A stretch of DNA of 64,000 nt from a virus. The stretch spans positions 1-64,000 of IMG/VR virus record IMGVR_UViG_3300005289_000003; one strand, given 5' to 3'. The notes beneath the pieces were generated by a model, which was not told where the DNA came from, ran no database searches, and saw only the letters and a program-made list of their open reading frames with translations. Position 1 is the stretch's first letter. Every line of letters begins with the position of its first letter. Of the stretch, positions 19,167-33,090 are shown piece by piece. The translations under genes were made by a program, and so were the position numbers.

Positions 19167-20433
19167 TTGATTTCTCTTCCGCTTTGTCTTGGTCACGTAG
19201 GTCTAGATACTTGTCATAACTTATTTCTCTGATGATACCTGCTGTTGGTTCATAATGAAGGTGAATGGTGATTCCACCTTCACCATGCCTGTTTTTCACA
19301 TTCTTTAGAATCATTGTTCTTTTGCTGGTGAGCCTGTTAGCAAATACGGACGTGGCATCCTGCCCGATACTGTCACCACGGGCCAAGTGCTCAGGACCAC
19401 CCGGATCATCTCTCTTGGTGGCAGCATCACGGTTTAGCTGTGCTGCACAGATGATAGGAATTCCGTATTCATTCGCAAGGATAGTCAGGTCATTGGACAG
19501 TTTTACTACAGAGGACCAGTCTTCACCAGCCATCTTCATCAAGGTGATGTAGTCAATGTAGACAATATCTGGCTCATTGCGTTCTATTTGTCCCTGGACA
19601 TCCAAAACCCCCATCCGGCCCTTAGATGAATCCATGACGTGCATCCGGCTACGTAGGTTCTTCCTTAGCCCCTGAAGGAACTTACGGTATTCAGCCGGAT
19701 CGATGTTTTTGCCTTGTGCCAAACTGATATTGTCGAATACCTTATTCCCATATTGCTTGGATAGTAGGGCGTGGACTCTTCCGGATACCTGAGCACGGGG
19801 CATTTCCAGAGAGTCAAACTGAATGCTCTTGCCAGCGATAAGGGCCGTAACCGCCATGCTAAGAAGCAACCATGATTTACCTTGGCCTAGACGGGCAGAG
19901 ACGATGTGGAGCCCAGTAGTAAACCCGCCTATCCGTTCATCAAAGGTTGGGAAGCCAGTGGGGATACCGGCGAATCCTTCTTCCTCATATTTTTGTTTAC
20001 GAAGAAGAAATTCCTTATAGTCTGTTTCCCAATCCCCAATAATGTCGTTATCGTGCATAACGTTACAGACCGAAGCGACTTTGATAGCCCCGGTATGCAT
20101 CGTCTCTATTGCTTTTTGGACGTTCCCTAGAGACAGTTGGTCGGCAGCCTTGGAAATAACACCACTTGTCAGGATTTCGGAGTGACGTTTCCGGACAAGA
20201 TCGGAATAGTGTCCTACGTCGTCTACCGCGATAACCCGGAACTCTGGGAACTGTGCCTTGAAGGCAGGCTTACTAGGTGCCCTCTTATAGGTGTAGATGT
20301 AGTGAAGAAGCCATTTTCCTTCGTCCGGGAACCCATGGAAGAACTCTTCACTAATGCCCTGGTCCAAGAGGGTTTGATGGTCACCCTGCCGGACGACAGC
20401 AGAGATCAAACCCACTTCGGGAGTACTCGCCAA
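19159..20433 (-). CDS. Replicative DNA helicase, DnaB-like
   Basis: 424 aa from TTG 20433 (GTG at 20415 is an alternative; upstream residues do not look homologous). Short N-terminal DnaB-like domain, then RecA-type core: TGLHIVSARLGQGKSWLLLS (Walker A), IDPAEYRKFLQG, DIVYIDYITLMKM (Walker B), and IPIICAAQLNRDAA (motif 3). Unwinds the fork and pairs with the primase at 17799. Confidence 0.9.
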   Translation of the reverse strand: MASTPEVGLISAVVRQGDHQTLLDQGISEEFFHGFPDEGKWLLHYIYTYKRAPSKPAFKAQFPEFRVIAVDDVGHYSDLVRKRHSEILTSGVISKAADQLSLGNVQKAIETMHTGAIKVASVCNVMHDNDIIGDWETDYKEFLLRKQKYEEEGFAGIPTGFPTFDERIGGFTTGLHIVSARLGQGKSWLLLSMAVTALIAGKSIQFDSLEMPRAQVSGRVHALLSKQYGNKVFDNISLAQGKNIDPAEYRKFLQGLRKNLRSRMHVMDSSKGRMGVLDVQGQIERNEPDIVYIDYITLMKMAGEDWSSVVKLSNDLTILANEYGIPIICAAQLNRDAATKRDDPGGPEHLARGDSIGQDATSVFANRLTSKRTMILKNVKNRHGEGGITIHLHYEPTAGIIREISYDKYLDLRDQDKAEEKSSG

Positions 20434-20593
20434 AGGTGTTAACCGCCTTTCCAGAGCACAAAAAAAGGTGAGCGGTGGAGGGCCACCCAGGACCCGCCAC
20501 CATCTCACCCGTTCGCGCGGTAGTCGACTATGCGTAGGGCACATCACTTCACATAGCCCGTTGACCCGATGTCCTAGGACTACCGGCAACGGA

Positions 20594-20622
20594 ATAGTAA
20601 CAAAACTTTCCGAAGTGCGCAA
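20594..20622 (-). promoter_or_regulatory. Leftward promoter, TTGCGC-17-TACTAT
   Basis: Read leftward: TTGCGC, 17 bp, TACTAT, about 160 bp before the helicase start. The 20434-20590 leader holds no gene. Confidence 0.45.
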
Positions 20623-20643
20623 TAGGTGAGCTATGTTTACTTT

Positions 20644-20692
20644 TGTCCGAACTGTACTCAACTGTCCTATATGCCCGGTTCGTGCTGTCCGG
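20644..20692. repeat. TGTCC cluster at divergent control region
   Basis: TGTCC, TGTAC, TGTCC, TGCCC and TGTCC at 9-14 bp spacing between the leftward helicase promoter and rightward tRNA-array promoters. Confidence 0.5.
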
Positions 20693-20778
20693 ACACCTAC
20701 CCGATCATGGTTGCTCGGGAGCAAGAAAACCAGGCAGGAGAGTCAGCATAGCTCCCTGACCTGGAACGATGCTACTTC

Positions 20779-20869
20779 TTGACAGACTGACGGGTGGTCT
20801 GATATATGCGGGACGTTCCTAAAAAATCTTGGGAACGTCCTTGACACGTGACCACAGGTTCCGTAAGTT
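20779..20869 (+). promoter_or_regulatory. Tandem promoters of the tRNA array
   Basis: P1: TTGACA, 17 bp, ATATAT (20779-20807). P2: TTGACA, 17 bp, TAAGTT (20841-20869). Between them GGACGTTCC / GGAACGTCC forms a 9-bp hairpin that only the P1 transcript would contain. TTCTTGACAGACTGACGGG at P1 is also present in the leftward promoter at 58986-59014. Confidence 0.75.
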
Positions 20870-20874
20870 CGTTC

Positions 20875-21836
20875 CTGTCAGCCCGGCAGGATGGCACAGA
20901 CCACCTAGACCACTGACACACGTAAGACCCGCATGACGCACCAAATCAAGACAGTAAGGCACGTACGCACGAAGCAAGACAGCATCGCCGCACTACCTGT
21001 AAGGCACGGTACGACACGCACACGAGCGGCAGGAGCAAGGCCAGCGGATACCAACCGCATGGCTGCCAGAGGGCTTTACAGAGCCTCTGGGGCTATACGG
21101 GCTAGGTCCGTGCAACCTCTCACTAAGCAACCGGTGTGACCCAACAGAAAAGACATGGCTAGTAATAATAAGCTTGCCCTTTGGCAGGGGTAAGGCGAAG
21201 CATCCCGCGACCGGGAAGGGTACCCCGGTGGGAAACCATGTCCGCCTAGCAGTCTTAGGCATACTAAATAGTGAGTGACTGAATGACGATAACAGTCACG
21301 ACGTGGCACCTTTTAAGGTACACCTATGTAAGTAGTGGGTGCCACTGGATTGACTGTCAGAGTTACTGTGCTCCGTTATGTCATCAGAGGATTGGTTCCG
21401 AGACGTATAGCCGCCGGTAGGGAGTACCTATCGATACGGGTACGCGGTATAACGCTAGCCCTACTAGTAAGTTGAGTACGGCCATGTAGGGCATGGTCCT
21501 ATGCTCCGCCATTTTCTCTGGTGACGTATCGGAGCACAGTCACTCCTATAGATGTGGCTAGGCTCCATTCTAATGGCGTTTCCGGTGACACGTTTATGTC
21601 AAAAGGTGGGGCCTAGTCGCGTAGCTGCAATAACCCAGTTGATATAACTGGGGGTATCCCTTCTGAGTAATACAAAGTACGTCGGTAGATCTCCTGGTCT
21701 TGTATCCGTACTGTGGCAAGAATCTGGACCGAAGATAAAACTTCAATTCGGATTGGCGCTCACCACACTAGACCTTGGCTAAGGCGCGTCGGACGTCTAT
21801 AAGTAGGAGTATAAGAACACACCACATCCGACACAT
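20875..21836 (+). ncRNA. About 1-kb structured non-coding transcript
   Basis: No credible gene; a 68-codon frame (20933-21139) lacks a ribosome site. Many long-range pairings: GTGACTG/CAGTCAC (21275-21299), GTGGCACC/GGTGCCAC (21303-21345), ACTGTGCTCCG/CGGAGCACAGT (11 bp, 21365-21540), GGCTAGGCTCC/GGGGCCTAGTC (11 bp with wobble, 21556-21618) and CCCAGTT/AACTGGG (21634-21652). Ends at tRNA-Val and is driven by the tandem promoters. Size and position recall large ornate phage RNAs such as GOLLD or ROOL, but I cannot assign it to either. Confidence 0.6.
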
Positions 21837-21910
21837 GCCCCGGTAGCTCAATCCGGCAGAGCGCCACTCTTACAAAGTGGATGTTAGAGGTTCAACTCCT
21901 CTTCGGGGTA
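21837..21910 (+). tRNA. tRNA-Val (TAC)
   Basis: Complete cloverleaf: GCCCCGG acceptor, D stem GCTC/GAGC, anticodon loop CTTACAA, T arm AGAGG-TTCAACT-CCTCT. No encoded CCA. First tRNA of the array. Confidence 0.9.
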
Positions 21911-21913
21911 CGG

Positions 21914-22040
21914 CACACATGGCGCTAAATCTCAAAATGGGGTATTGGCATTGCGCCATCAGATGTAGCGAAGGTTTGAATAGGCCGGAAACAGTTATGC
22001 CGCTGGGTTCTGTTCATTCCAAGTAACTACGCCATGTGTG
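21914..22040 (+). ncRNA. Stem-closed RNA 1
   Basis: CACACATGGCG at 21914-21924 pairs perfectly with CGCCATGTGTG at 22030-22040 (11 bp), enclosing about 105 nt without a gene. Confidence 0.55.
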
Positions 22041-22051
22041 TAATTAAAACA

Positions 22052-22110
22052 GGGCAAGGGGTCCGGACTGTATAAACCGGCTTAAACGGCACTGTGGTGT
22101 GCCCTTGCCC
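22052..22110 (+). ncRNA. Stem-closed RNA 2
   Basis: GGGCAAGGG / CCCTTGCCC, 9 bp, enclosing 41 nt that contain a CCGG...CCGG sub-hairpin. The 22111-22284 interval has weaker hairpins only. Confidence 0.5.
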
Positions 22111-22284
22111 ACCATTAAGATATTGGGAGCGCTGATAGTAGGCAATTCAGGAAGAAGGTTGCGGAGTCCAAGGACTGTGAAACAACTCTTCTTAGGAACC
22201 CTGGATAGGGCCACTGGGTGATGGCAGCGTAACGGCCGATAGCGGGTGATTCGGCTACACACGTCTCTAAGAGGAAGTAGAAGC

Positions 22285-22500
22285 GTGTCTCCAGAAGAGC
22301 AAAAGGTAGTCAAGGCTTCTGCTGACTTGGAAGACCTAGCAGCAGAGCTACGGGACATCATCAACGAAATGCGTCAGCGTCCAACTGATACGGCTTACGC
22401 CTATGCCCTGACTTATAACTTCAGGACTGATCTAGGGCGTGTGGTGGCTTCCCTGGGGGCTGGTAAGCCGAGCATGAAGGTAATGAATGGAAAGCACTAG
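22285..22500 (+). CDS. Helical hypothetical protein
   Basis: 71 aa. GTG after AGAGGAAGTAGAAGC is chosen over an earlier in-frame start with no ribosome site. Acidic amphipathic helix (SADLEDLAAELRDIINEM) then a second helix. Function unknown; first protein gene in the tRNA array. Confidence 0.7.
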   Translation: MSPEEQKVVKASADLEDLAAELRDIINEMRQRPTDTAYAYALTYNFRTDLGRVVASLGAGKPSMKVMNGKH

Positions 22501-22647
22501 ACGGGCAGTGGGCGCGATAGCTGCCAACCTAGTAAGTAAGCCGCCCCCCGGCTTTCACTGAACGGTGAACCAAAACGCGCTAAGGGAACCTAGTCCGTTT
22601 ACGGTATGGGAGCGGGCCACGTCCTAGGTGAGGGTTTAGAGGACATT

Positions 22648-22692
22648 CCCCGTGGGGTCTGTTTGCAGGCTTAAAACCACAAACCCACGGGG
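22648..22692 (+). ncRNA. Stem-closed leader of tRNA-Gly
   Basis: CCCCGTGGG / CCCACGGGG, 9 bp, ending 6 nt before tRNA-Gly. Confidence 0.5.
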
Positions 22693-22698
22693 CTTCAT

Positions 22699-22770
22699 GC
22701 GGTCATAGCTCAATTGGCAGAGCGCCAGACTTCCAATCTGGTGACCGGGGTTCAATTCCCCGTGGCCGTT
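22699..22770 (+). tRNA. tRNA-Gly (TCC)
   Basis: Acceptor GCGGTCA/TGGCCGT, D stem GCTC/GAGC, anticodon loop CTTCCAA, T arm CGGGG-TTCAATT-CCCCG. Confidence 0.9.
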
Positions 22771-22772
22771 CT

Positions 22773-22890
22773 GTTCCCCATAGGTCCGGCAGACTAAAGG
22801 GGAACCGTCTATCCACCTTAGACGTTAAATATGCGTGGTTTATCCCTGCCAATTGGTTAGGGGTACGTCTTTCTCCTCTGACGTTAAACG
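22773..22890 (+). ncRNA. Repeated hairpin-GTTAAA elements
   Basis: GTTCCCC/GGGGAAC (22773-22805) is followed by two similar hairpins, each ending in GACGTTAAA: CGTCT...AGACGTTAAA (22806-22829) and ACGTC...GACGTTAAA (22865-22888). The 22771-23022 gap has no gene. Confidence 0.4.
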
Positions 22891-23022
22891 AGGATGACGG
22901 CCGATGGTACGGCGGTTTGCATTGCTGTCTGGGAGTGGGTACCCAGATGGAACCGACACGAGTTAAACCCATATAGGGAGTGGTCGGACCGTACCACCAT
23001 AAGCTTCAAAGGAGGAGTATAG

Positions 23023-23253
23023 ATGGTTACCATTTACTTCCCTGCCTACACAGCTAAGTTCAAGCTTCAGGATCGGGTTTACCTGACCAACAAGATTTCA
23101 TCAGGTCTGGGGACTGTAGTCGGCATCCACGCTCCATGGTCGATTGGCTTTGTAAGCGTTGGCGTTCGATACTCCGTCTCCTGGGATCGGAACAGGAAGA
23201 CTCTCAACGGTCCGGCCATGGAATCCGAAGAGGAATTGTCTAAGGTGATCTGA
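23023..23253 (+). CDS. Small beta-rich protein
   Basis: 76 aa; ATG after AAAGGAGGAG. YTAKFKLQDRVYLTNKISSGLGTVVGIHAPW looks like a KOW/Tudor-like or SH3-like strand order (basic strand, GxGxVxGI turn), typical of RNA- or protein-binding barrels. Not assigned further. Overlaps the next gene by one base. Confidence 0.75.
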   Translation: MVTIYFPAYTAKFKLQDRVYLTNKISSGLGTVVGIHAPWSIGFVSVGVRYSVSWDRNRKTLNGPAMESEEELSKVI

Positions 23254-23474
23254 TGCCCAGAGCTAAGGCGACTCATCCTTTCCACCTGGTTCAGGTCGGT
23301 ATTCCTTCGTACAACCCGCTAGAAGAGAAGCCTGTCTTGCGCATCACTGCGATAGACGAAAAAGACGGCAGGTTATTGGAGGGAGACTTCACCCCAGAGG
23401 AATTTAGAGTCTGGGCAGCCTCCTTGAACAAGTGGGCTGATCTATACGACGATATGGTTAGTCGCAAGAAGTAA
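23253..23474 (+). CDS. Hypothetical protein
   Basis: 73 aa, unknown. ATG overlaps the upstream TGA. A beta segment (FHLVQVGIPSYN, PVLRITAIDEKDG) and a C-terminal helix (EFRVWAASLNKWADLYDDM). Confidence 0.75.
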   Translation: MPRAKATHPFHLVQVGIPSYNPLEEKPVLRITAIDEKDGRLLEGDFTPEEFRVWAASLNKWADLYDDMVSRKK

Positions 23475-23539
23475 TACTTGTGGTCCCGATGAAAATAGCC
23501 ACTAGTGCCACGGTCAAGGTTCGGGATAGCCGTTGGTAT

Positions 23540-23612
23540 GGGGTCATAGCTCAGATGGAAGAGCGGAGCACTGAAAATGCTCAGGTCCGTGGTTCGATTC
23601 CACGTGTCCCCA
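23540..23612 (+). tRNA. tRNA-Phe (GAA)
   Basis: GGGGTCA acceptor with one T-T mismatch, anticodon loop CTGAAAA, T arm CGTGG-TTCGATT-CCACG. Confidence 0.85.
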
Positions 23613-23662
23613 CGGGAGGCCCTGAGAGGGCTCCTAACAAGATCACCTTTGAAGGGGGTGTC

Positions 23663-24073
23663 ATGGCAGCGTCAGCAACCCCTCGGGTCCGTACGGCCCG
23701 TTCAGGGGCTTCCAAGAAGGCAGCTACACCAGTAGCCGACCCCATGGTTGTGGAGATGGACTTCAAGCCAAGTTCCGGGGCACGCTTCGTCTACGATCCG
23801 GAAGACATTCCGAAGATTGTGATGGCCTTTGAGGGGCTACACGCGATCCTCTCGGCTGAATTCCTGGCAGAGGCCAAGACTCCGGATATCGTCAAGGTTC
23901 TGGTAGACAACGGCTATACCCTGTCGACCACCAGTGACCCGAAGTATGGGGCACTGTATGAAGGCCCGTTCATCACCTTGACCTACAAGAAGACTCTTCT
24001 TCGTCTGTCCGTGGTGGTTACCAAGGACAGCATCAAGGCAGACTTCCGGACCTATTACGAGACCAGAGGATAA
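23663..24073 (+). CDS. Hypothetical protein, basic N-terminus
   Basis: 136 aa; ATG after GAAGGGGGTG is used because upstream codons run through tRNA-Phe. A basic Ala/Thr-rich N-terminal 30 residues is followed by a beta-alpha domain (MVVEMDFKPSSGARFVYDP...). Fits a small DNA- or RNA-binding protein, but no family is recognised. Confidence 0.75.
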   Translation: MAASATPRVRTARSGASKKAATPVADPMVVEMDFKPSSGARFVYDPEDIPKIVMAFEGLHAILSAEFLAEAKTPDIVKVLVDNGYTLSTTSDPKYGALYEGPFITLTYKKTLLRLSVVVTKDSIKADFRTYYETRG

Positions 24074-24077
24074 GTTT

Positions 24078-24249
24078 CCTTCAGGGAATTGATGCCCCAG
24101 GATTTGCGCCATGCGTCCTGGGAGTCCCTGAAGGAGCGGCAGGGAAGGAAGCGCGGGCAATCCCCCACACGTGCCCGTGAGACTCTGGCTCCCCGTGGTT
24201 CCCTGATTGGACGACAGGGTTAATCTTCGTGGTAGCTTCCTTCCCTGTC
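24078..24249 (+). ncRNA. Two stem-closed RNAs before tRNA-Ile
   Basis: First: CCTTCAGGGA/TCCCTGAAGG with inner CCCAGGA/TCCTGGG (24078-24134). Second: a 15-bp stem 24138-24152 with 24235-24249 (GGCAGGGAAGGAAGC against GCTTCCTTCCCTGTC, one wobble) enclosing GGGCA/TGCCC. Ends 6 nt before the tRNA. Confidence 0.6.
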
Positions 24250-24255
24250 AGTTAG

Positions 24256-24331
24256 GCCCCTGTAGCCAAGTTCGGGGAAGGCATCCGTCTTATACGCGGA
24301 AGATACGTTGGTTCAAATCCAACCAGGGGTA
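24256..24331 (+). tRNA. tRNA-Ile (TAT)
   Basis: Acceptor GCCCCTG/CAGGGGT, anticodon loop CTTATAC, T arm GTTGG-TTCAAAT-CCAAC. Reads ATA, a codon that is rare in high-GC hosts, so useful to the phage. Confidence 0.85.
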
Positions 24332-24370
24332 CTGTTTTTGACCTATCCACTTACCCTAGGGAATCATTTA

Positions 24371-24490
24371 GTGAAGCACACGCACACGTGCCAGAATGCA
24401 GACTGTAAGAAAGTGTTCTACTGTACTGGCACGGGAGAACACCAGAGTGAATGCACGCATTGTGGAAACAAATATACCTTCACAAGCTAG
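24371..24490 (+). CDS. Zinc microprotein, CxNxxCKKxFxC type 1
   Basis: 39 aa; GTG after TAGGGAA. HTHTCQNADCKKVFYC and ECTHCGNKYTF give a four-cysteine ribbon with a His-rich N-terminus. Paralogue of the next gene. Function unknown; part of the tiny zinc-protein set in this array. Confidence 0.65.
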   Translation: MKHTHTCQNADCKKVFYCTGTGEHQSECTHCGNKYTFTS

Positions 24491-24500
24491 GGGTTAATGG

Positions 24501-24632
24501 GTGGCTTCTCACTCGCACACATGTCAGAACACGTCATGTGGCAAGACGTTCCAATGCAATAAGGTAGGACCCCACACGTTGGCGTGTCCTGATTGTGGTT
24601 CCGATACATCAGGCCACACGCACGCTCACTAA
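24501..24632 (+). CDS. Zinc microprotein, CxNxxCGKxFxC type 2
   Basis: 43 aa; GTG after TAGGGGTTAATGG. HSHTCQNTSCGKTFQC and CPDCGSDTSGHTHAH repeat the cysteine spacing of the preceding protein and end in a His cluster. Ends 8 bp before tRNA-Gln. Confidence 0.65.
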   Translation: MASHSHTCQNTSCGKTFQCNKVGPHTLACPDCGSDTSGHTHAH

Positions 24633-24640
24633 TTTCATAA

Positions 24641-24713
24641 TCCCCTGTGGTCTAATCTGGCAAGACATCGGATTTTGGTTCCGATCATCTAGGTTCAAAT
24701 CCTGGCAGGGGAG
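24641..24713 (+). tRNA. tRNA-Gln (TTG)
   Basis: Acceptor TCCCCTG/CAGGGGA, TGGTCTAAT D loop typical of Gln, anticodon loop TTTTGGT, T arm CTAGG-TTCAAAT-CCTGG. Confidence 0.85.
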
Positions 24714-24738
24714 CGGCATTGCGAAAGGAGGATTGCGA

Positions 24739-25335
24739 ATGCCGGGTTTCAACCCTGATGGCTCTTATAGAGTCTTTGATTCTGAAGCGGAAAGACTAGA
24801 AAACCAAGAGGCTGTAAGAAGAATCATTCAGGGTTTGCACACCAAGTATCCTGACCCGAGGGTAAGCCCACGTCCGGGTAATCCTGAAAAATGGGTTGGG
24901 AGTCTGAAGATGCCCAAAAAGATAGAGTTCAAAGATGGTGTGTTCCAATACGTGGGACCGCCAACCAAATCGGAAGGTACTGAAAACAAAATGGCGCGTG
25001 ACAGTGGTATGGACGTCAAGAGCTACAGCCCGTCGGACCCCAAGTTCGCCAGTGACGAGACTCCTTTCGAAGTCGGCCAGATCATCTCCATCGTGGGTCG
25101 CCACGGCGAGAGCGGTACCCACCTGCTGATCACGGACGTTCAGGCAGACACGGAGGTTCGTCACGAGGGTTCACCGGTCGGTGGCACCTACTACACCGGC
25201 TACGCTTCCAACGATTACGACCGTTCCACCCAGGTCATCAAGGTGGAGAACGGCACGGCCGTGACCGTGTGGACCGAGTACGACGTTCCGGTTACCCCGA
25301 AGGGTCTCCAGTCGCTTTCCTTCCCGAAGCGGTGA
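24739..25335 (+). CDS. Hypothetical protein, two-part
   Basis: 198 aa; ATG after AAAGGAGGA. N-terminal 80 residues are polar (DSEAERLENQEAVRRI); the C-terminal 115 residues are beta-rich (FEVGQIISIVGRHGESGTHLLITDVQ, QVIKVENGTAVTVWTEYDVPV). From about 25010 the codon use is visibly more GC-biased than before, suggesting a fusion or domain acquisition. The C-terminal strand order again recalls the VW-type small barrels. Confidence 0.75.
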   Translation: MPGFNPDGSYRVFDSEAERLENQEAVRRIIQGLHTKYPDPRVSPRPGNPEKWVGSLKMPKKIEFKDGVFQYVGPPTKSEGTENKMARDSGMDVKSYSPSDPKFASDETPFEVGQIISIVGRHGESGTHLLITDVQADTEVRHEGSPVGGTYYTGYASNDYDRSTQVIKVENGTAVTVWTEYDVPVTPKGLQSLSFPKR

Positions 25336-25366
25336 CCCTGACCTGATACCCAGGTCTAGATAAGCT

Positions 25367-25420
25367 CCTACCGGTCGACAGACGACATAAGCCCTGTTAC
25401 GGCAACGTCGGGCCGGTAGG
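25367..25420 (+). ncRNA. Stem-closed leader of tRNA-Arg
   Basis: CCTACCGG / CCGGTAGG enclosing a GACG...CGTC sub-stem; ends 4 nt before the tRNA. Confidence 0.5.
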
Positions 25421-25424
25421 TCTA

Positions 25425-25496
25425 GCCTCTATAGCTCAACGGATAGAGCACCGTGCTACGAACGCGGGTGTCCAGGTTCGATTCCTGGTAGAGGTA
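25425..25496 (+). tRNA. tRNA-Arg (ACG)
   Basis: Acceptor GCCTCTA/TAGAGGT, anticodon loop CTACGAA (A34 expected to become inosine via the host TadA), T arm CCAGG-TTCGATT-CCTGG. Confidence 0.9.
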
Positions 25497-25509
25497 CGCA
25501 ATAAAACTT

Positions 25510-25659
25510 CCAGCAATGGCTATAGGGTCGATCCGGACGTCTCCCGGTAGGTTGCTGGTTGGCTTGTATGACACGGGTGAGCAATTGCTATTGTGGAACT
25601 TGCCTCCACAAAGAACCAACCCTCCCAAGGCATGGGCTCAGAATGGTTGGCCGTGTCAT
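25510..25659 (+). ncRNA. Hairpin plus multi-arm stem-closed RNA
   Basis: CCAGCAA/TTGCTGG (25510-25558), then ATGACACGG/CCGTGTCAT (25568-25659) closing a junction with arms TTGTGGA/TCCACAA and CCAACC/GGTTGG plus the self-complementary GAGCAATTGCT: cloverleaf-like but with no T loop. Ends 3 nt before tRNA-Asn. Confidence 0.6.
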
Positions 25660-25662
25660 TAT

Positions 25663-25736
25663 TCCCCGTTAGCTCAACTAGGCAGAGCAACGCACTGTTA
25701 ATGCGTCGGTTGAATGTTCGAATCATTCACGGGGAG
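25663..25736 (+). tRNA. tRNA-Asn (GTT)
   Basis: Acceptor TCCCCGT/ACGGGGA, D stem GCTC/GAGC, anticodon loop CTGTTAA, T arm GAATG-TTCGAAT-CATTC. Confidence 0.9.
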
Positions 25737-25740
25737 CCTA

Positions 25741-26160
25741 GTCCCCAATGCGTCAAACTGATTGCCGATATTTGTAAGGTCGTGGTATCGCAGCATGAGG
25801 CAAGGTAGGTTGTAGCTATGTTTTCGCACCTTGGACATAGTTATACGGTGCTCCTAACCAATAGACCTTCCTGCGCATTGGGGACTTCAAAGCATCCTGA
25901 CGTCAGTCAGGAGCGAAGCATCCTAGGGAGAGTGATACGCCAACACCACTAATACGTGTCCCGTGAGCCCTAGGTAAGTCGGGACGTTGGCAGATTGGGT
26001 AAAAGGGCAAGCTTCCGTTTAGGTGGTGACAGCCGAGAGAAGAAGCCTGGGCACCCTAGGGTTAGATGAGGCAATATAGCGTTGACCTGACCCGTAGGAC
26101 TGTCACCCTGTAGCGCGATGGAAGAATACGCATGCGCGATAGTCGTACTTCTAGGGTGCC
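25741..26160 (+). ncRNA. Three consecutive stem-closed RNAs
   Basis: GTCCCCAATGCG/CGCATTGGGGAC (12 bp, 25741-25885), CCTAGGG/CCCTAGG (25922-25974) and GGCACCCTAG/CTAGGGTGCC (10 bp, 26050-26160), with a small perfect hairpin TCCTGAC...GTCAGGA between the first two. No gene in these 420 bp. Confidence 0.6.
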
Positions 26161-26185
26161 ACCCAATCGTTACATTGGAGACTAA

Positions 26186-26518
26186 ATGATAAAGTTTGGT
26201 GTCTTTGCTAAGACATTGGAAGAAGCCTGGTTCAAGGCTCACAACGAAGCAAAGCTCTTCTTCGGTGAGTCCAGGGTTCATAGCGTCAGGTTTCTGGGTG
26301 GCACCAAAGAAGATGATGACGCCTATTACTGCACCTTTGCCGCAGACTTGGTAAATGATGCGGATGCGGTTTCTGAGTACTACCCAACGGGTCGGCCATC
26401 TTCTCCGCCACCTTTCGAACCTCTGACTACTCCTCTGCCACTCTTGGAGGCCACGGCGATAATCGGGCCTACCACAGAGGAAAGAGAAGTCCTCAGAGTC
26501 AGCTATACAACCGAATAG
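26186..26518 (+). CDS. Hypothetical protein
   Basis: 110 aa; ATG after TTGGAG. N-terminal MIKFGVFAKTLEEAWFKAHNEAKLFF is a beta-alpha unit; the C-terminus is Pro-rich then beta. Function unknown. Confidence 0.75.
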   Translation: MIKFGVFAKTLEEAWFKAHNEAKLFFGESRVHSVRFLGGTKEDDDAYYCTFAADLVNDADAVSEYYPTGRPSSPPPFEPLTTPLPLLEATAIIGPTTEEREVLRVSYTTE

Positions 26519-26525
26519 ATGGCTT

Positions 26526-26610
26526 GCCATGGATGCACGCATGGGACGTGCGCCAGTCTGTAGAACTGGTGTCTAACAAGGCTAAGTAGGTTCGATTCCT
26601 ACCCGTGGCA
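26526..26610 (+). tRNA. tRNA-Tyr (GTA)
   Basis: Class II tRNA with a 16-nt variable region. Acceptor GCCATGG/CCGTGGC, D stem GCAC/GTGC, anticodon loop CTGTAGA, T arm GTAGG-TTCGATT-CCTAC. Confidence 0.9.
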
Positions 26611-26612
26611 CT

Positions 26613-26719
26613 GGAGACAATGAGGATAGAGCAGAGTCCCTAACCCGTAAGGGTGGGACGGTTTCCATAGCTGGCCACCGGCGAAACTCTGCTTTCACGG
26701 TTCAATTCCGGAGTCTCCT
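26613..26719 (+). ncRNA. Anticodon-less tRNA-like RNA, copy 1
   Basis: GGAGAC/GTCTCC acceptor, a T-arm-like CGG-TTCAATT-CCG, and in place of D and anticodon arms one large arm GCAGAGT/ACTCTGC containing GTCCC-ACCC/GGGT-GGGAC. Starts 2 nt after tRNA-Tyr. Its 5' ATGAGGATA, 3' TCACGGTTC and downstream CTCTATTCA recur in copy 2 (28486-28584). Confidence 0.6.
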
Positions 26720-26745
26720 CTATTCAAAAACTATAAGGAGTATTT

Positions 26746-26955
26746 GTGGGCAGAGCTACACACACGACAACCACGATTAGGCGAATCATTGTTGGTCAAG
26801 AGTTCTATCTCTCTATCGACGGAGTCACCGCTTACAAGCTCCTGACCAAGTCAGACATTGGTGGAGCAAGCTACAACGTCACCTTCAAGCGTGCAGACAA
26901 TGAAGGTGAAACCGAGCATGGAGACTGGCCGTACAACACCAAGGTCTACATCTGA
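26746..26955 (+). CDS. Small protein, beta family with KVYI end
   Basis: 69 aa; GTG after AAGGAG. RIIVGQEFYLSIDGVTAYKLLTKSD, SYNVTFKRADNEGE and terminal NTKVYI follow the order of the VWIY family at the left end (xGxxFxxSxDxxxxYxxxxxxDG, middle, V[WY]I). Confidence 0.75.
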   Translation: MGRATHTTTTIRRIIVGQEFYLSIDGVTAYKLLTKSDIGGASYNVTFKRADNEGETEHGDWPYNTKVYI

Positions 26956-26982
26956 CGGGGTCATGCCTGTTGGCCCGTTGCT

Positions 26983-27254
26983 GGTGAGCCTGTAGGCGAG
27001 CGGAGCACACCAGCCCAAAGAGGCTCACCTTTGCAGGGGTAGAGCCTCAATAGGTGGCCCCCGTGACGGTACCCAGAAGCCACGTGGTAGGGCTCTGGTG
27101 AGCTACCGGGGGCAGAGGCCCTAGGTTGTGTTCCAGCCCTTCCTAGGGCCTCTCAGACGTCTCTGTGGGAGCTTCCCTGTCCCCCCGTCAGGGCCACAGA
27201 GACAGGGGGAACCCTGGTGGGTTCCACTCCCCCCGGAATTCCTAGGGTTCCCCC
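26983..27254 (+). ncRNA. Chain of stem-closed RNAs before tRNA-Trp
   Basis: GGTGAGCCT/AGGCTCACC (26983-27029); AGGCCCTAGG/CCTAGGGCCT (about 27116-27152); GTCTCTGTGG/CCACAGAGAC (27159-27203); GGGGGAACCCT/AGGGTTCCCCC (27205-27254). Four strong independent stems in 270 gene-free bases; the last ends 6 nt before the tRNA. Confidence 0.6.
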
Positions 27255-27260
27255 GTTCAA

Positions 27261-27333
27261 GCGTCGTTAGCTTAATTGGTAGAGCTACGGTCTCCAAAAC
27301 CGTCAGGTGAGGGTTCGAATCCCTTGCGGCGTG
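27261..27333 (+). tRNA. tRNA-Trp (CCA)
   Basis: Acceptor GCGTCGT/GCGGCGT with wobbles, anticodon loop CTCCAAA, T arm GAGGG-TTCGAAT-CCCTT. Confidence 0.9.
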
Positions 27334-27352
27334 CTCCAAAGGAGGAAACTAT

Positions 27353-27478
27353 ATGAGCAAAAATATATCTGGTATGGAGTGTGGCTGCATGCTGGTTATT
27401 GAGTACGGTAAAGCGCCGTACATCATCAGGCACGCTAATTGCAAGAAGGCCCACGGCACACCAGAGAAGAAGAATTGA
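27353..27478 (+). CDS. CGC microprotein A
   Basis: 41 aa; ATG after AAAGGAGGAAACTAT, an ideal ribosome site. ECGCMLVIEYGKAPYIIRHANCKKAHG parallels the protein at 29287 (SCGCVLVFVDGKFSHQDVKNCNRGH): CGC, hydrophobic strand, GK, then HxNC/KNC and a final Cys-His pair. Likely metal binding. Confidence 0.7.
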   Translation: MSKNISGMECGCMLVIEYGKAPYIIRHANCKKAHGTPEKKN

Positions 27479-27479
27479 C

Positions 27480-27983
27480 ATGACCATGTCAGATGCCGAT
27501 CACATGCACCCGCATGTGGCTAGGGCTCTTCACGATGCTTTGAAGAGTGGGGACTACAAGCAAGGTCACAACTTCCTTCACAAGGTAATGAAGGACATAG
27601 GTGATCTTTACTGCTGCTTGGGTGTCCTTTGCCGGCTAGCCATTAACGCTGGCGTAGTGGTTCCTCAGGAAGAGTTCAATCTAGGGAACGGCAATCAGGT
27701 AGTCATCAAGTATGAAGGTGATGACGGGTGGCTTGGCCTGATAGTCAGTGAGTGGGCCGGAAAGCACGCTACTCCTTCTTATAGGCTTCCTCTCTGGTAC
27801 GACGAAGAGAAGAAGATTCCTTTTGCTGGGGACCTTGACGAAGAAATGGACCGTATTACTCTGGCCATCTTGAATGATGGAGATAGCAATAGGTTCCATG
27901 GTCTGACATTCTCTCAAATAGCCGACATCGTTTTGTTCATGTGGGGATACGGCGATGAAGACGAAGTATCGGCTAACGATTAG
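27480..27983 (+). CDS. CCLGVLC-motif phage protein
   Basis: 167 aa; ATG one base after the previous stop. LYCCLGVLCRLAINAG at about residues 41-56 is a motif seen in many actinophage proteins of unknown function. Region between is alpha/beta and acidic at the C-terminus. Role unknown. Confidence 0.8.
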   Translation: MTMSDADHMHPHVARALHDALKSGDYKQGHNFLHKVMKDIGDLYCCLGVLCRLAINAGVVVPQEEFNLGNGNQVVIKYEGDDGWLGLIVSEWAGKHATPSYRLPLWYDEEKKIPFAGDLDEEMDRITLAILNDGDSNRFHGLTFSQIADIVLFMWGYGDEDEVSAND

Positions 27984-28125
27984 ACGGAGTAACGGAAGAC
28001 TCGTTCGCGAATACGGCAACCTGAGCAAGTACGCGGCTAAAGTCCGTAGAGATGAACTAGAAGACAAATACGATTCCGGCTATTACGTCGAATTGACACC
28101 CGATAGGAAACCCAATGCTGAATAA
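27955..28125 (+). CDS. Basic small protein
   Basis: 56 aa; ATG overlaps the preceding gene by 29 bp, with GGGGATACGGCG upstream. MKTKYRLTIRRSNGRLVREYG then a helical basic stretch. Its stop overlaps the next ATG. Function unknown. Confidence 0.55.
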   Translation: MKTKYRLTIRRSNGRLVREYGNLSKYAAKVRRDELEDKYDSGYYVELTPDRKPNAE

Positions 28126-28402
28126 TCCAGGTCTCGTCTACGTCTGCTACATGGTCAGTGGGGACCAGGAGCCACGGCCCATCAAGGTGGGTCTGACGTA
28201 TGACGAAGCCTTGAAGGAAGTCAACGCGAATAAGAGGGCTGTCAAAACCGTACTCAGGTTCGCGTGGATCGCTGGCCTGTTCAGTAAGGAAGCGCGCAAG
28301 AACATGCAAACCCTGAAGGGTGTGAAGTACTACATCACGGGGTACCGGCCCACGGCGGTCAACAACCTTGCCACGGTGGATGAGGAGTGGGCAGAACAAT
28401 AA
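28115..28402 (+). CDS. Hypothetical protein
   Basis: 95 aa. LVYVCYMVSGDQEPRPIKVGLTYDEALKEV is a beta hairpin plus helix; ends with an acidic helix. Overlaps the upstream gene by 11 bp. Function unknown. Confidence 0.75.
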   Translation: MLNNPGLVYVCYMVSGDQEPRPIKVGLTYDEALKEVNANKRAVKTVLRFAWIAGLFSKEARKNMQTLKGVKYYITGYRPTAVNNLATVDEEWAEQ

Positions 28403-28410
28403 GGAAATAA

Positions 28411-28483
28411 GCCCCATTAGCTCAGTGGACAGAGCGACACCCTTCTAAGGTGAAGGCCGTAGGTTCGACTCCTACATGGGGTA
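28411..28483 (+). tRNA. tRNA-Arg (TCT)
   Basis: Acceptor GCCCCAT/ATGGGGT, anticodon loop CTTCTAA on a 4-bp-plus-mismatch stem, T arm GTAGG-TTCGACT-CCTAC. Reads AGA. Confidence 0.85.
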
Positions 28484-28485
28484 CG

Positions 28486-28584
28486 GGGGCACGATGTGGA
28501 AACGCGGGGAAGTAGGAAACAGTTTCTTCCTCCTTTATGTTTCCTATGATGACCGTTGTCACGGTTCGATTCCGGGGTGCCCCT
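28486..28584 (+). ncRNA. Anticodon-less tRNA-like RNA, copy 2
   Basis: GGGGCAC/GTGCCCC acceptor (7 bp), T-arm-like CACGG-TTCGATT-CCGGG, and a single arm TAGGAAAC/GTTTCCTA instead of D and anticodon arms. Starts 2 nt after tRNA-Arg, as copy 1 starts 2 nt after tRNA-Tyr, and is followed by the same CTCTATTCA. Confidence 0.65.
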
Positions 28585-28810
28585 CTATTCACTCTGAAGA
28601 GTGACCTGTAAGCACACCTATAAGTAGACTCTCCCTTCTGTCTGGCAGGATAAGAGCCACGGCTAGCATGCTGTCTGTGGTGACTGAAACTGCCCCGTAC
28701 GCGGAGAATGGCAAAGGGAGCGCATGTCACGCCACTGTGGATGAGTCATAGCCCTACCGAGTGCGCCGGTTCTAAGGGGTTAGGCGTTCGTCCGGAAGAG
28801 CGCTGGAACG

Positions 28811-28938
28811 AATGAGGGCCTACTAGGTGGAGTCGATTGGACTACTCGGGTCAGGTTGTCTAGGGTCTTAGAGCTGACGCAACCTGATGCAAAAGGGACG
28901 GGTAGGAGACTGAGAAGCCGATAATGTAGGCCCTCATT
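28811..28938 (+). ncRNA. Stem-closed RNA, 13-bp stem
   Basis: AATGAGGGCCTAC pairs perfectly with GTAGGCCCTCATT, enclosing CAGGTTG/CAACCTG. Ends 12 nt before the ribosome site at 28949. The 28585-28810 part has only small hairpins (CACTCT/AGAGTG). Confidence 0.6.
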
Positions 28939-28960
28939 TGTTTTGTCCAAAGGAGGAAAA

Positions 28961-29287
28961 ATGACAGATTTCATTATTGGCTGGATTCTTCCACCATTGA
29001 TGGTTATCGTGCTAGTAATCATGAATGTGTGTGGATACATGACAAAGAAGGGATACGATAAATACGTATGCCTGTCATGGGGAATAATGGCTATTTATTC
29101 TCTCGTCAAGGTTGATATCGGCGGGATAATCATCTACCTTACTTTTTCTCTTTATCACGGTTACAAGTGGTGGAAGAACCGCAAGGATGACGACTGGACC
29201 GACAAGGGTAACAAGCCAAAGCGGAAGCGTTCCCGTAACTGGGTTCCGAAGCTAAAGAACCCTGAACCAACAAAGTCGGTGGTGTAG
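28961..29287 (+). CDS. Membrane protein with basic tail
   Basis: 108 aa; ATG after AAAGGAGGAAAA. Three hydrophobic segments (IIGWILPPLMVIVLVIMNV, LSWGIMAIYSLV, GGIIIYLTFSLYHGY) then a strongly basic tail (KPKRKRSRNWVPKLK) expected inside the cell. Function unknown. Confidence 0.75.
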   Translation: MTDFIIGWILPPLMVIVLVIMNVCGYMTKKGYDKYVCLSWGIMAIYSLVKVDIGGIIIYLTFSLYHGYKWWKNRKDDDWTDKGNKPKRKRSRNWVPKLKNPEPTKSVV

Positions 29288-29388
29288 TGGCGACCGAGAA
29301 GCGTCCGCTAAGTTGCGGTTGTGTCCTGGTATTCGTGGATGGCAAGTTTTCACATCAGGACGTTAAGAACTGCAACAGAGGGCATTAG
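29287..29388 (+). CDS. CGC microprotein B
   Basis: 33 aa; GTG overlaps the upstream TAG. SCGCVLVFVDGKF...VKNCNRGH matches CGC microprotein A (27353) in spacing. Translationally coupled to the membrane protein. Confidence 0.65.
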   Translation: MATEKRPLSCGCVLVFVDGKFSHQDVKNCNRGH

Positions 29389-29418
29389 TTATTAATGGGT
29401 GGGCGAGGAAGACACCGC

Positions 29419-29480
29419 GCGTGGTCGGTGCTTGGAAACCGCCCTATGCCTCTGCACCAGATAGCCAGAGGTAGCCACGC
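29419..29480 (+). ncRNA. Stem-closed leader of tRNA-Ser
   Basis: GCGTGG/CCACGC enclosing CCTCT/AGAGG; ends 2 nt before tRNA-Ser. Confidence 0.45.
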
Positions 29481-29482
29481 AT

Positions 29483-29569
29483 GGGGAGTTGGCAGAGTGG
29501 CCGAATGCACTAGTCTTGAAAACTAGAGGGGCCTTAAAACCCCCAAGGGTTCAAATCCCTTACTCCCTT
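29483..29569 (+). tRNA. tRNA-Ser (TGA)
   Basis: Class II. Acceptor GGGGAGT/ACTCCCT, anticodon loop CTTGAAA, GGGG/CCCC variable arm, T arm AAGGG-TTCAAAT-CCCTT. Confidence 0.9.
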
Positions 29570-29570
29570 C

Positions 29571-29681
29571 GTGATACAAGAAGATGGTTGTACCTGCTGC
29601 GAGGATGGCGGGTTTACCGAGGGATATGGTAATAGCCATCGGTGCGGCAATTGTGGACACACTGAAGGAGCCCATAAGTAA
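29571..29681 (+). CDS. CxCC zinc microprotein 1
   Basis: 36 aa. GCTCCEDGGFTEG, then CGNCGHTEGAHK. GTG starts one base after tRNA-Ser. First of four coupled cistrons whose stops overlap the next ATG (TAATG or TGATG). Shared pattern across the family: Cx[CI]C, 12-20 residues, CxxCxHxxxAH. Confidence 0.65.
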   Translation: MIQEDGCTCCEDGGFTEGYGNSHRCGNCGHTEGAHK

Positions 29682-29821
29682 TGGCCGAATGTACCTGTTG
29701 CACAAATGGTGCCTTTGTTGAAGGACTCAACCCGAACCTGTGTAACAACTGCTTTCACCTGAAGTCGCTTCACTCCATCGTGGTGAGCTTCTTCAAGTTC
29801 TGGAATAGGATTAGCTTCTGA
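29681..29821 (+). CDS. CxCC zinc microprotein 2
   Basis: 46 aa. ECTCCTNGAFVEG, LCNNCFHLKSLHS, then a hydrophobic aromatic tail (IVVSFFKFWNRISF) that could associate with membrane. ATG overlaps the upstream TAA. Confidence 0.65.
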   Translation: MAECTCCTNGAFVEGLNPNLCNNCFHLKSLHSIVVSFFKFWNRISF

Positions 29822-29934
29822 TGGGTGTCTGTATCTGCTGCCTCTTTGGTGACTTCAAGGGTGGTGGCGAAAAGGACATCAAGGATATATGCGGGTGTGG
29901 CCATCACAGGAAAGACCACCAGAAGAGGTTTTAA
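29821..29934 (+). CDS. CxCC zinc microprotein 3
   Basis: 37 aa. VCICCLFGDFKGG, then CGCGHHRKDHQ. ATG overlaps the upstream TGA. The CICCLFGDF start closely resembles CYCCFIGDF at 30170 and CYCCLFDI at 41143. Confidence 0.65.
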   Translation: MGVCICCLFGDFKGGGEKDIKDICGCGHHRKDHQKRF

Positions 29935-30047
29935 TGTTCTTCTTTCTCTTCGGAGCATGTAGTTGCTGCTTGGCAGGCTCCTTCTCTGAGGGTGGCAACG
30001 ACGGTAAGTGCTCCCTCTGCAATCACACGTACGGAGCACACACCTAG
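29934..30047 (+). CDS. CxCC zinc microprotein 4
   Basis: 37 aa. FGACSCCLAGSFSEGG, CSLCNHTYGAHT. ATG overlaps the upstream TAA. Ends 5 bp before tRNA-Ser (GCT). Confidence 0.65.
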   Translation: MFFFLFGACSCCLAGSFSEGGNDGKCSLCNHTYGAHT

Positions 30048-30052
30048 AAATA

Positions 30053-30141
30053 GGTAGGGTGGCAGAGTGGCCTATTGCGCGTCCCTGCTAAGGACGTAAG
30101 GGAACAACACACCTTCCAGGGTTCGAATCCCTGCCCTACCG
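30053..30141 (+). tRNA. tRNA-Ser (GCT)
   Basis: Class II. Acceptor GGTAGGG/CCCTACC, anticodon loop CTGCTAA, long variable arm, T arm CAGGG-TTCGAAT-CCCTG. Confidence 0.9.
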
Positions 30142-30169
30142 CGCACCATTAAAAAGGAGGAAATAAAGG

Positions 30170-30286
30170 ATGCTTTGGTACCTATTTGCAGGTTGCTACT
30201 GTTGCTTCATCGGTGACTTCATCGAGAGTGATAGCGACCGGAAAACCTGCAAGAGATGTACGCATGTGAGGGGTGCTCATTCTTAA
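30170..30286 (+). CDS. CxCC zinc microprotein 5
   Basis: 38 aa; ATG after AAAAAGGAGGAAATAAAGG, which confirms that this family is translated from a strong site. GCYCCFIGDFIESD, CKRCTHVRGAHS. Confidence 0.75.
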   Translation: MLWYLFAGCYCCFIGDFIESDSDRKTCKRCTHVRGAHS

Positions 30287-30432
30287 TGGGCTCTTGCTCA
30301 TGCTGTAACTCTGGTGGATTCGAAGCTAGCGCTACAGCCCTCATTTGCAAACATTGTCTTCATGTCAGGTCTGCTCACTCTGGCTACTTCCACTACATGG
30401 CTTCCTTCCTCCGCTACATGACAGGAAGGTAA
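30286..30432 (+). CDS. CxCC zinc microprotein 6
   Basis: 48 aa. SCSCCNSGGFEAS, CKHCLHVRSAHS, then an aromatic tail (GYFHYMASFLRYM). ATG overlaps the upstream TAA. Confidence 0.7.
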   Translation: MGSCSCCNSGGFEASATALICKHCLHVRSAHSGYFHYMASFLRYMTGR

Positions 30433-30445
30433 ATAGCGTGGAGTA

Positions 30446-30506
30446 TGACGGGCCTCCACGGTGGTGAACGTGCGGCCGTAGGTAGCCACCGAAACAAATC
30501 CCGTCA
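30446..30506 (+). ncRNA. Stem-closed leader of tRNA-Asp
   Basis: TGACGGG/CCCGTCA enclosing GGTGG/CCACC; ends 3 nt before tRNA-Asp. Confidence 0.5.
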
Positions 30507-30509
30507 AAT

Positions 30510-30585
30510 GCCCCCGTAGCTTAGCCGGGTTTAAAGCGCCACCCTGTCAAGGTGGAGACCGAGGGTTCAAATCCCTTCGGGGGCG
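30510..30585 (+). tRNA. tRNA-Asp (GTC)
   Basis: Acceptor GCCCCCG/CGGGGGC, anticodon loop CTGTCAA, T arm GAGGG-TTCAAAT-CCCTT. Confidence 0.9.
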
Positions 30586-30591
30586 CGTGCT

Positions 30592-30728
30592 ACGTAATGG
30601 CAATTGCGTAGAGTCTGTGGTCAGCAACCGCCAATTGCTCCGCGCGACAGACACGCATTACGTGTGGCCGAGTGACCGGCAATGCTTTGGTGGTGGAGAT
30701 GGTCACGCTGCCTACCAGAGAGCCACAC
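30592..30728 (+). ncRNA. Two stem-closed RNAs before tRNA-Pro
   Basis: ACGTAATG/CATTACGT (30592-30663) encloses GCAATTG/CAATTGC interleaved with GTCTGT/ACAGAC, a possible pseudoknot. GTGTGGC/GCCACAC (30662-30728) encloses GTGACC/GGTCAC and ends 4 nt before the tRNA. Confidence 0.55.
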
Positions 30729-30732
30729 GGAA

Positions 30733-30806
30733 CGGGTCATAGCTCAATTTGGTGGAGCGCTTGGTTTGGGACCAAGAGGTTACAGGTTCAAATCCTGTTG
30801 GCCCGA
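30733..30806 (+). tRNA. tRNA-Pro (TGG)
   Basis: Acceptor CGGGTCA/TGGCCCG, anticodon loop TTTGGGA, T arm ACAGG-TTCAAAT-CCTGT. Confidence 0.9.
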
Positions 30807-30822
30807 CGCGAAAGGAGGAATG

Positions 30823-30906
30823 ATGCGTAGATTCCTGGAAGAGCTTCTAGAGAGAATCGCGGACATGAACGACAACGACACGAGAGAGCTTGGCAAGGAT
30901 CGGTGA
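30823..30906 (+). CDS. 27-residue helical peptide
   Basis: MRRFLEELLERIADMNDNDTR is an amphipathic helix. AAAGGAGG lies 5 nt before this ATG (a preceding ATG is too close). The stop overlaps the next GTG. A real gene is likely because of the perfect ribosome site; function unknown. Confidence 0.55.
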   Translation: MRRFLEELLERIADMNDNDTRELGKDR

Positions 30907-31091
30907 GTATAGCCACCTTTGGAATCTTTTGTTTCCTCTGGTTGGCCGCTGCTTACTCGCTCTGTATTTACTTGATAAAGACAGTTCGGGACGACACGTT
31001 TAACCTTAGGGTCACAATTGCTTGCTTCTCTGTCCTGATACCTGTGGGCATCCTGCTACTGGTGGTGTCCTTTGTGTCAGTGGTGACTTAG
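30903..31091 (+). CDS. Two-helix membrane protein
   Basis: 62 aa, GTG overlapping the upstream TGA. Hydrophobic stretches at about 3-25 and 37-61 with a basic loop between. Function unknown. Confidence 0.7.
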   Translation: MSIATFGIFCFLWLAAAYSLCIYLIKTVRDDTFNLRVTIACFSVLIPVGILLLVVSFVSVVT

Positions 31092-31114
31092 CAAGATTTG
31101 AAGGAGGAATTGAG

Positions 31115-31282
31115 ATGGGTTTCGCGATAGCCATAGTCGTCATGCTCGTTGCCCTGGTGGTTGTGATGTCTGCTCTACTGGCGGTTGACCAGCACATCCG
31201 GAACAGGCCACCCTTGGCCCCCACCATCAAGCAAGACATTGCTGAAGCGGTGGAGCGTTACCGGACGGAGCTTTACCAGTGA
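31115..31282 (+). CDS. Single-pass membrane protein
   Basis: 55 aa; ATG after GAAGGAGGAATTGAG. N-terminal transmembrane helix (FAIAIVVMLVALVVVMSALLAV) then a soluble polar tail. Overlaps the next GTG by 4 bp. Confidence 0.75.
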   Translation: MGFAIAIVVMLVALVVVMSALLAVDQHIRNRPPLAPTIKQDIAEAVERYRTELYQ

Positions 31283-31572
31283 GCTTGGTTGAAGCGATAT
31301 ACGAAACCGCGCTACTAGACATCCTGGTTGCCCTGGAAGCGGGACACCCTGAAGAAGCCGCCAGGATGGCCCGTAAGGCTCTGGGAGTACCTGACCCATC
31401 CAAGGACACCCAGGACGGTTCAGAGGCTGTCAGCGTGGCTCCTGGGGGCCTTCATGGGCTCAGTGGGCTTGAGACCTTGCCGGTACTTGTCAGGGACTCA
31501 GGGGGTATGCCCGTCAGGGGTAACGGGCTACCTCCAATCAATTGGCGTCGTCCGTGGATGAGGAAACGGTGA
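31279..31572 (+). CDS. Hypothetical protein
   Basis: 97 aa. N-terminal helix pair (EAIYETALLDILVALEAGHPEEAARMARKAL), then a Gly/Pro-rich C-terminal half. GTG overlaps the upstream TGA. Function unknown. Confidence 0.65.
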   Translation: MSLVEAIYETALLDILVALEAGHPEEAARMARKALGVPDPSKDTQDGSEAVSVAPGGLHGLSGLETLPVLVRDSGGMPVRGNGLPPINWRRPWMRKR

Positions 31573-32254: not shown

Positions 32255-32257
32255 AGC

Positions 32258-32437: not shown

Positions 32438-32446
32438 GGAATAACT

Positions 32447-33075: not shown

Positions 33076-33090
33076 ACAACTGAATACATG

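What the first reader, a model, noticed from the sequence alone, without database searches (positions are those of the whole stretch)
20875..21836. About 1 kb structured non-coding RNA leads the tRNA array
Driven by two TTGACA promoters, this region has no credible gene but several 7-11-bp long-range helices, including an 11-bp stem closing 176 nt. Size, position beside tRNAs and phage context recall GOLLD and ROOL, yet I cannot match their conserved motifs from memory.
Basis: partly seen in the sequence, partly recalled or inferred. Interest (0 to 1): 0.75.

Follow-up and report, generated by a model that had tools for sequence, protein, structure and literature searches.

The report
Orphan structured RNA before phage tRNAs
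A bacterial virus carries, just ahead of its large set of transfer-RNA genes, a stretch of about 360 bases that folds far better as RNA than chance allows; it matches no known RNA family and has no detectable relatives, so it is a good candidate for a new viral RNA but its role is unproven.

Summary
20434-21836 is non-coding and lies between a leftward DnaB gene and a rightward tRNA array of 23 genes, in an 86-kb phage distantly related to Brevibacterium/Gordonia phages. The exceptional fold is not the whole 962 nt. It is confined to about 21281-21640 (+): z about -8.6 to -8.9, best of 212 window positions, clearly better on the + than the - strand. The 5' part (20875-21280) and 3' part (21641-21836) fold like shuffled sequence. 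GOLLD and ROOL are not supported: no hit at E<=10, while the same GOLLD search finds known phage copies at 216 bits. Only two same-phage contigs, identical over the RNA, carry it, so covariation cannot be tested. Best reading: a + strand structured RNA in the leader of the tRNA operon, probably freed by RNase P at tRNA-Val and acting as a stable RNA; a cis-acting leader is the main rival. Expression and function are unproven. In passing: six tandem Y-RNA-like units beside a Ro60/TROVE gene at 33164-35584.

The parts
20779..20808 (+). promoter-like P1: TTGACA, 18 nt, TATATG
   Evidence: consensus match only
20810..20841 (+). 13-bp perfect hairpin with 6-nt loop between P1 and P2 (operator or RNA hairpin; no T-tail)
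   Evidence: -20.4 kcal/mol, z -6.3; a search for the inverted repeat found no second copy in the window (GGAACGTCC occurs once)
20841..20869 (+). promoter-like P2: TTGACA, 17 nt, TAAGTT; start expected near 20876
   Evidence: consensus match only
20875..21280 (+).
   Evidence: z -0.5; non-coding
21281..21640 (+). structured core of the RNA (-159.5 kcal/mol over 360 nt)
   Evidence: z -7.6 to -8.9, best of 212 window positions; strand asymmetry
21292..21357 (+). element A: 7+10-bp stem with apical hairpin
   Evidence: z -3.3
21360..21545 (+). element B: 34-bp interrupted long-range helix (21360-21396/21508-21545) ending in a three-way junction with two hairpins
   Evidence: strongest helix of the window, 0/200 shuffles
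21552..21622 (+). element C: 25-bp hairpin rich in G-U pairs, stable only as + strand RNA
   Evidence: + strand -37.2 kcal/mol z -5.7; - strand -17.8 z -2.3
21641..21836 (+). 3' part of the leader up to tRNA-Val; ordinary folding; holds a possible promoter TTGGCT-17-TATAAG at about 21775-21803
   Evidence: z 0.06
21837..21911 (+). tRNA-Val(tac), first tRNA of the array; RNase P cut at its 5' end would free the leader (inferred)
21912..22284 (+). non-coding spacer after tRNA-Val with a 12-bp helix 21913-21924/22030-22041; mild excess of folding only

Best explanation
The phage makes a structured non-coding RNA from the + strand as the 5' part of its tRNA-array transcript. Transcription starts near 20876 (inferred). 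The stretch 21281-21640 folds into three side-by-side elements: stem A, a long helix B ending in a three-way junction, and hairpin C (computed). RNase P, which must cut at the 5' end of tRNA-Val, frees the upstream RNA (inferred from general tRNA maturation). The very stable core would resist degradation and accumulate as a free RNA during infection, working in the manner of GOLLD and ROOL (phage RNAs coded near tRNA islands) without being a member of either family (inferred). Its target or partner is unknown. The part 'a real + strand RNA structure' I hold at about 0.85; the part 'acts as a free RNA' at about 0.45.
For: The core is the best-folding of 212 360-nt window positions (z -8.6; controls mean -1.5, sd 1.5, minimum -6.15). 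It shows the largest strand asymmetry of 107 windows (-19.9 kcal/mol against a control sd of 6.7, none of 106 as large), which a DNA-level inverted repeat would not give. Hairpin C alone is -37.2 on the + and -17.8 on the - strand. Helix B is beyond 200 shuffled windows. Elements A and C exceed shuffles when folded alone. The region is non-coding, follows two TTGACA motifs and leads directly into tRNA-Val with no terminator-like site on the + strand between them. Phage RNAs of this general kind near tRNA islands are documented (PMC12286853).
Against: There is no covariation test: the only other copies are two contigs of the same phage, identical across the RNA. No expression data. The stretches 20875-21280 and 21641-21836 are not unusually structured, so a 1-kb ornate RNA is not shown. 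The nearest phages by DnaB (about 40% identity) lack tRNA arrays and have ordinary, unstructured gaps at the corresponding place, so nothing shows conservation. Ordinary windows of this phage also fold somewhat better than shuffles.
Confidence: 0.5

Rival explanations
1. A cis-acting structured leader: the folded core acts only on its own transcript, for example as an antitermination, transcript-stabilising or processing element that lets polymerase run through the 16-kb tRNA array.
For: The structure lies in the leader of a long array with 23 tRNAs, few terminator-like sites nearby and no stronger promoter match directly before most tRNAs; structured leaders that act in cis are common (general knowledge).
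Against: At about 360 nt it is several times larger than known antitermination RNAs such as put (general knowledge, not tested here); a possible promoter just before tRNA-Val (TTGGCT-17-TATAAG) would uncouple the tRNAs from it.
Confidence: 0.27
2. A replication-origin or regulatory region beside the helicase and primase genes, possibly with an origin RNA as in extrachromosomal mycobacteriophages.
For: It lies directly upstream of the divergent DnaB-primase genes; relatives also have 0.4-1.2 kb of unannotated DNA upstream of the helicase genes; RNA-based phage origins exist (PMC7157519); the upstream part 20434-20874 folds well on both strands (z -4.6 and -3.2), as palindromic DNA would.
Against: No repeat family of three or more copies, no DnaA-box-like match in the region, the cumulative GC-skew minimum of the window lies near 8-10 kb, not here, and the core's stability is strand-specific.
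Confidence: 0.12
3. Chance or history: an inverted duplication plus random pairing in a non-functional spacer.
For: No relatives of the sequence anywhere searched; phage spacers can be young and unconstrained.
Against: Three elements exceed shuffles, with a G-U bias towards one strand; helix B is beyond 200 shuffled windows.
Confidence: 0.08
4. A divergent GOLLD or ROOL RNA missed by the models.
For: Position at a tRNA array in a phage, and size of the whole spacer.
Against: No hit at E<=10 for either model although the GOLLD model scores 216 bits in mycobacteriophages Bongo and PegLeg; the structured part is only about 360 nt.
Confidence: 0.03

Closest known systems
GOLLD RNA (RF02032)
   Same: Phage-coded large structured RNA associated with tRNA arrays, also in actinobacterial phages (found here in Bongo and PegLeg)
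   Different: No covariance-model match at E<=10; the structured part is about 360 nt and lacks the conserved part that the model describes
ROOL RNA (RF03087)
   Same: Phage or prophage RNA often near tRNA islands (PMC12286853)
   Different: No covariance-model match at E<=10 (no positive control was available in that search)
Replication-associated non-coding RNAs of extrachromosomal mycobacteriophages (PMC7157519)
   Same: Non-coding RNA from a small transcribed region of an actinophage genome
   Different: Those act in prophage maintenance next to parABS; here the neighbours are DnaB/primase and a tRNA array, and no origin-like repeats were seen
Y RNA / YrlA (RF02553)
   Same: Present in the same tRNA array 12 kb away, with a Ro60 protein
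   Different: No YrlA match in the finding's region

Membership tests
GOLLD (RF02032) | Match to the conserved covariance model | tested here: not met
   No match at E<=10 in the 86-kb genome; positive control 216 bits in Bongo and PegLeg
GOLLD (RF02032) | Coded in a phage or prophage near a tRNA array | tested here: met
   23 tRNAs from 21837 to 37998
GOLLD (RF02032) | Homo-oligomeric nanocage assembly | not testable with these tools
   Needs cryo-EM or native gels
ROOL (RF03087) | Match to the conserved covariance model | tested here: not met
   No match at E<=10; no positive control rang in that search, but the permissive scan of all Rfam models over the region also found none
Any other Rfam family (OLE, HEARO, 6S, introns, riboswitches) | Match to the covariance model in 20400-23100 | tested here: not met
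   Permissive cmscan to E 5: only tRNAs and tRNA-like chance matches
Structured non-coding RNA in general | Folding beyond composition and beyond other stretches of the same genome | tested here: met
   Core z -8.6, best of 212 window positions, strand-specific
Structured non-coding RNA in general | Covarying pairs among divergent homologues | tested here: inconclusive
   No divergent homologue found in phages, plasmids, exact-pattern scans of IMG/VR and GTDB, or with a single-sequence covariance model over relatives
Structured non-coding RNA in general | Expression as RNA | not testable with these tools
   No transcriptome available

The most novel reading that the evidence does not exclude
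A new class of phage structured RNA, unrelated in sequence to GOLLD and ROOL, freed from the leader of a tRNA array and acting as a free, possibly self-assembling RNA during infection.
Probability: 0.25. Interest if true: 0.75.

Novelty: new variant of a known kind. Interest (0 to 1): 0.45.

Why it matters
Large structured RNAs coded beside phage tRNA arrays (GOLLD, ROOL) are ornate but have no known function. A third, unrelated RNA in the same genomic niche would suggest that the niche itself, tRNA delivery during infection, selects for such RNAs, and would give a smaller example of about 360 nt for structural and genetic work.

Tried and rejected
A coding gene: rejected by period-3 signal and domain search. 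GOLLD and ROOL membership: rejected. RF01998 was searched first by mistake for GOLLD; it is a group II intron fragment and gave nothing. Homologues through neighbours: DnaB relatives at about 40% have no tRNA arrays and ordinary gaps. Ro60-bearing actinophages with tRNA arrays: a single-sequence covariance model of element B finds nothing convincing (best 18 bits in Chidiebere, chance level). Exact 16-19-mers from the RNA in IMG/VR and GTDB: only the two same-phage contigs plus chance matches that do not extend. The whole-region z of -6.6 as evidence for a 1-kb RNA: rejected after calibration on other windows and dissection by parts. The first 240-nt scan timed out, and one 962-nt run printed nothing and was repeated. 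An alignment with wrong locus coordinates was discarded and replaced.

Full report
What the region is. The window is bases 1-64000 of an 86,444-base virus record. The finding lies in a 1.4-kb ORF-free gap (20434-21836) between a leftward DnaB helicase gene and a rightward tRNA array of 23 tRNAs running from 21837 to 37998. DnaB is 42% identical to that of Brevibacterium phage Cantare and about 40% to Gordonia phages such as Chidiebere and GMA6, so the phage belongs to a distant branch of that actinophage group. Two further contigs of the same phage are held in IMG/VR: one has no mismatch over its stretch and the other one mismatch in 11.4 kb, at 25935, outside the RNA.

Is it non-coding? Yes, as far as sequence can tell. 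Period-3 signal is 16 per kb in 20875-21836 against 48-91 in genes of the same phage. The longest ORF is below 90 aa, and six tested ORFs match no Pfam family.

Is it structured? That is less remarkable than it looks: 40 other 962-nt windows of this phage average z -2.9 (sd 1.7), and one coding window reaches -7.65. Dissection shows where the signal is: 20875-21280 z -0.5, 21281-21640 z -8.9, 21641-21836 z +0.06. The 360-nt core is the best-folding of 212 window positions (z -8.6; controls mean -1.5, sd 1.5, minimum -6.15). The core was chosen after seeing the fold, which flatters it somewhat, but the gap to the next window (-6.15) is wide. With 100 shuffles the tool gives -159.5 kcal/mol and z -7.6.

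The anatomy of the core: element A, a 7+10-bp stem 21292-21357; element B, a long interrupted helix of 34 bp, 21360-21396 with 21508-21545, closing a three-way junction with hairpins 21404-21446 and 21447-21504; element C, a 25-bp hairpin 21552-21622. In 200 shuffled windows the maximum averaged 45.7 and never passed 61.4 (fitted extreme-value probability about 0.0005). The two hairpins inside B are not exceptional by themselves (21397-21507, z -1.0).

RNA or DNA? The fold is strand-specific. The excess stability of the + over the - strand is 19.9 kcal/mol, outside all 106 control windows (sd 6.7). Hairpin C is -37.2 kcal/mol as + strand RNA and only -17.8 as - strand RNA, because many of its pairs are G-U. 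A palindromic DNA element would not show this. By contrast, stem A folds about equally on both strands, and the upstream part 20434-20874 folds well on both strands (z -4.6 and -3.2), as regulatory palindromes would; it includes a perfect 13-bp hairpin at 20810-20841 between the two promoter-like motifs.

Transcription. TTGACA occurs at 20779 and 20841; the second with TAAGTT after 17 nt would start transcripts near 20876. The stricter sigma-70 scan passes neither, and one or two such loose matches are expected per window by chance, so promoter function is a guess supported mainly by place. No terminator-like site lies on the + strand before tRNA-Val. If the tRNA is processed normally, RNase P would cut at 21836/21837 and free the upstream RNA (inference from general tRNA maturation). 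A possible second promoter at about 21775-21803 could uncouple the two.

Relatives. Sensitive nucleotide searches of 50,697 phage records found nothing, and at E up to 10 only one chance match; plasmids gave nothing. Exact patterns from five places in IMG/VR and one in GTDB gave only the same phage and chance matches that do not extend. A covariance model of element B over 37 phage and viral records, including the DnaB relatives and six Ro60-bearing actinophages, gave nothing credible. Of the relatives by DnaB, the complete phages have no tRNAs and the metagenomic ones at most two clear tRNAs, and the gaps before their helicase genes fold like shuffled DNA. Covariation, the standard proof of a structured RNA, is therefore untestable with what is held.

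Known families. Neither GOLLD nor ROOL matches at E<=10. The GOLLD search is valid: it scores 216 bits in mycobacteriophages Bongo and PegLeg. ROOL had no positive control in that search. A permissive scan of all 4,227 Rfam models over 20400-23100 found only tRNAs and tRNA-like chance matches. GOLLD and ROOL are described as phage RNAs often near tRNA islands that assemble into RNA-only cages and have no known function (PMC12286853). The present RNA shares the niche, not the family.

How it most likely works. Shown by computation: a strand-specific, exceptionally stable 360-nt fold in a non-coding stretch that leads the tRNA array. Inferred: co-transcription with the array, release by RNase P, persistence as a stable free RNA, and action in trans in the manner of GOLLD/ROOL. 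The main rival is a cis-acting leader for the long array; others are an origin region next to the replication genes and chance. The next steps given would separate them.

Verdict. Interest is moderate because function and conservation are both open.

Noticed in passing
window 33164-33946 (+): Six tandem Y-RNA-like units between tRNA-His and a Ro60/TROVE gene. Each has an invariant GAAGCG on the 5' side, a TATTTCTC- or TATTACTC-type motif on the 3' side, and a closing stem whose sequence differs in every unit but stays paired. Units 1 and 2 carry permuted tRNA-like modules and match YrlA RF02553 below the cut-off (38.3 and 21.8 bits). Arthrobacter phage Atuin has two units of the same motif after its Ro gene. 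This may deserve its own study.
   Followed up: partly
window 33977-35584 (+): 535-aa Ro60-like protein with TROVE domain (Pfam 6.8e-12, phrog_850), about 40% identical to Ro-like proteins of Streptomyces phage BRock and Gordonia phage VanLee.
   Followed up: partly
window 29681-30432 (+): Four or five tandem tiny ORFs (37-52 aa) with a shared CxCC...CxxCxHxxxxH-like pattern, likely a family of duplicated mini zinc-binding proteins inside the tRNA array.
   Followed up: no
window 20434-20874: Upstream part of the gap folds well on both strands (z -4.6 and -3.2) and holds a perfect 13-bp hairpin at 20810-20841 between two TTGACA motifs; a candidate operator.
   Followed up: partly
window 21366-21375, 21499-21508, 21530-21539: CTGTGCTCCG and CTATGCTCCG can both pair with CGGAGCACAG, so helix B has a possible alternative local hairpin, a potential conformational switch.
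   Followed up: no
window 42501-43462: A 962-nt window overlapping the start of the DNA polymerase III alpha-like gene folds even better against shuffles (z -7.65); not examined.
   Followed up: no
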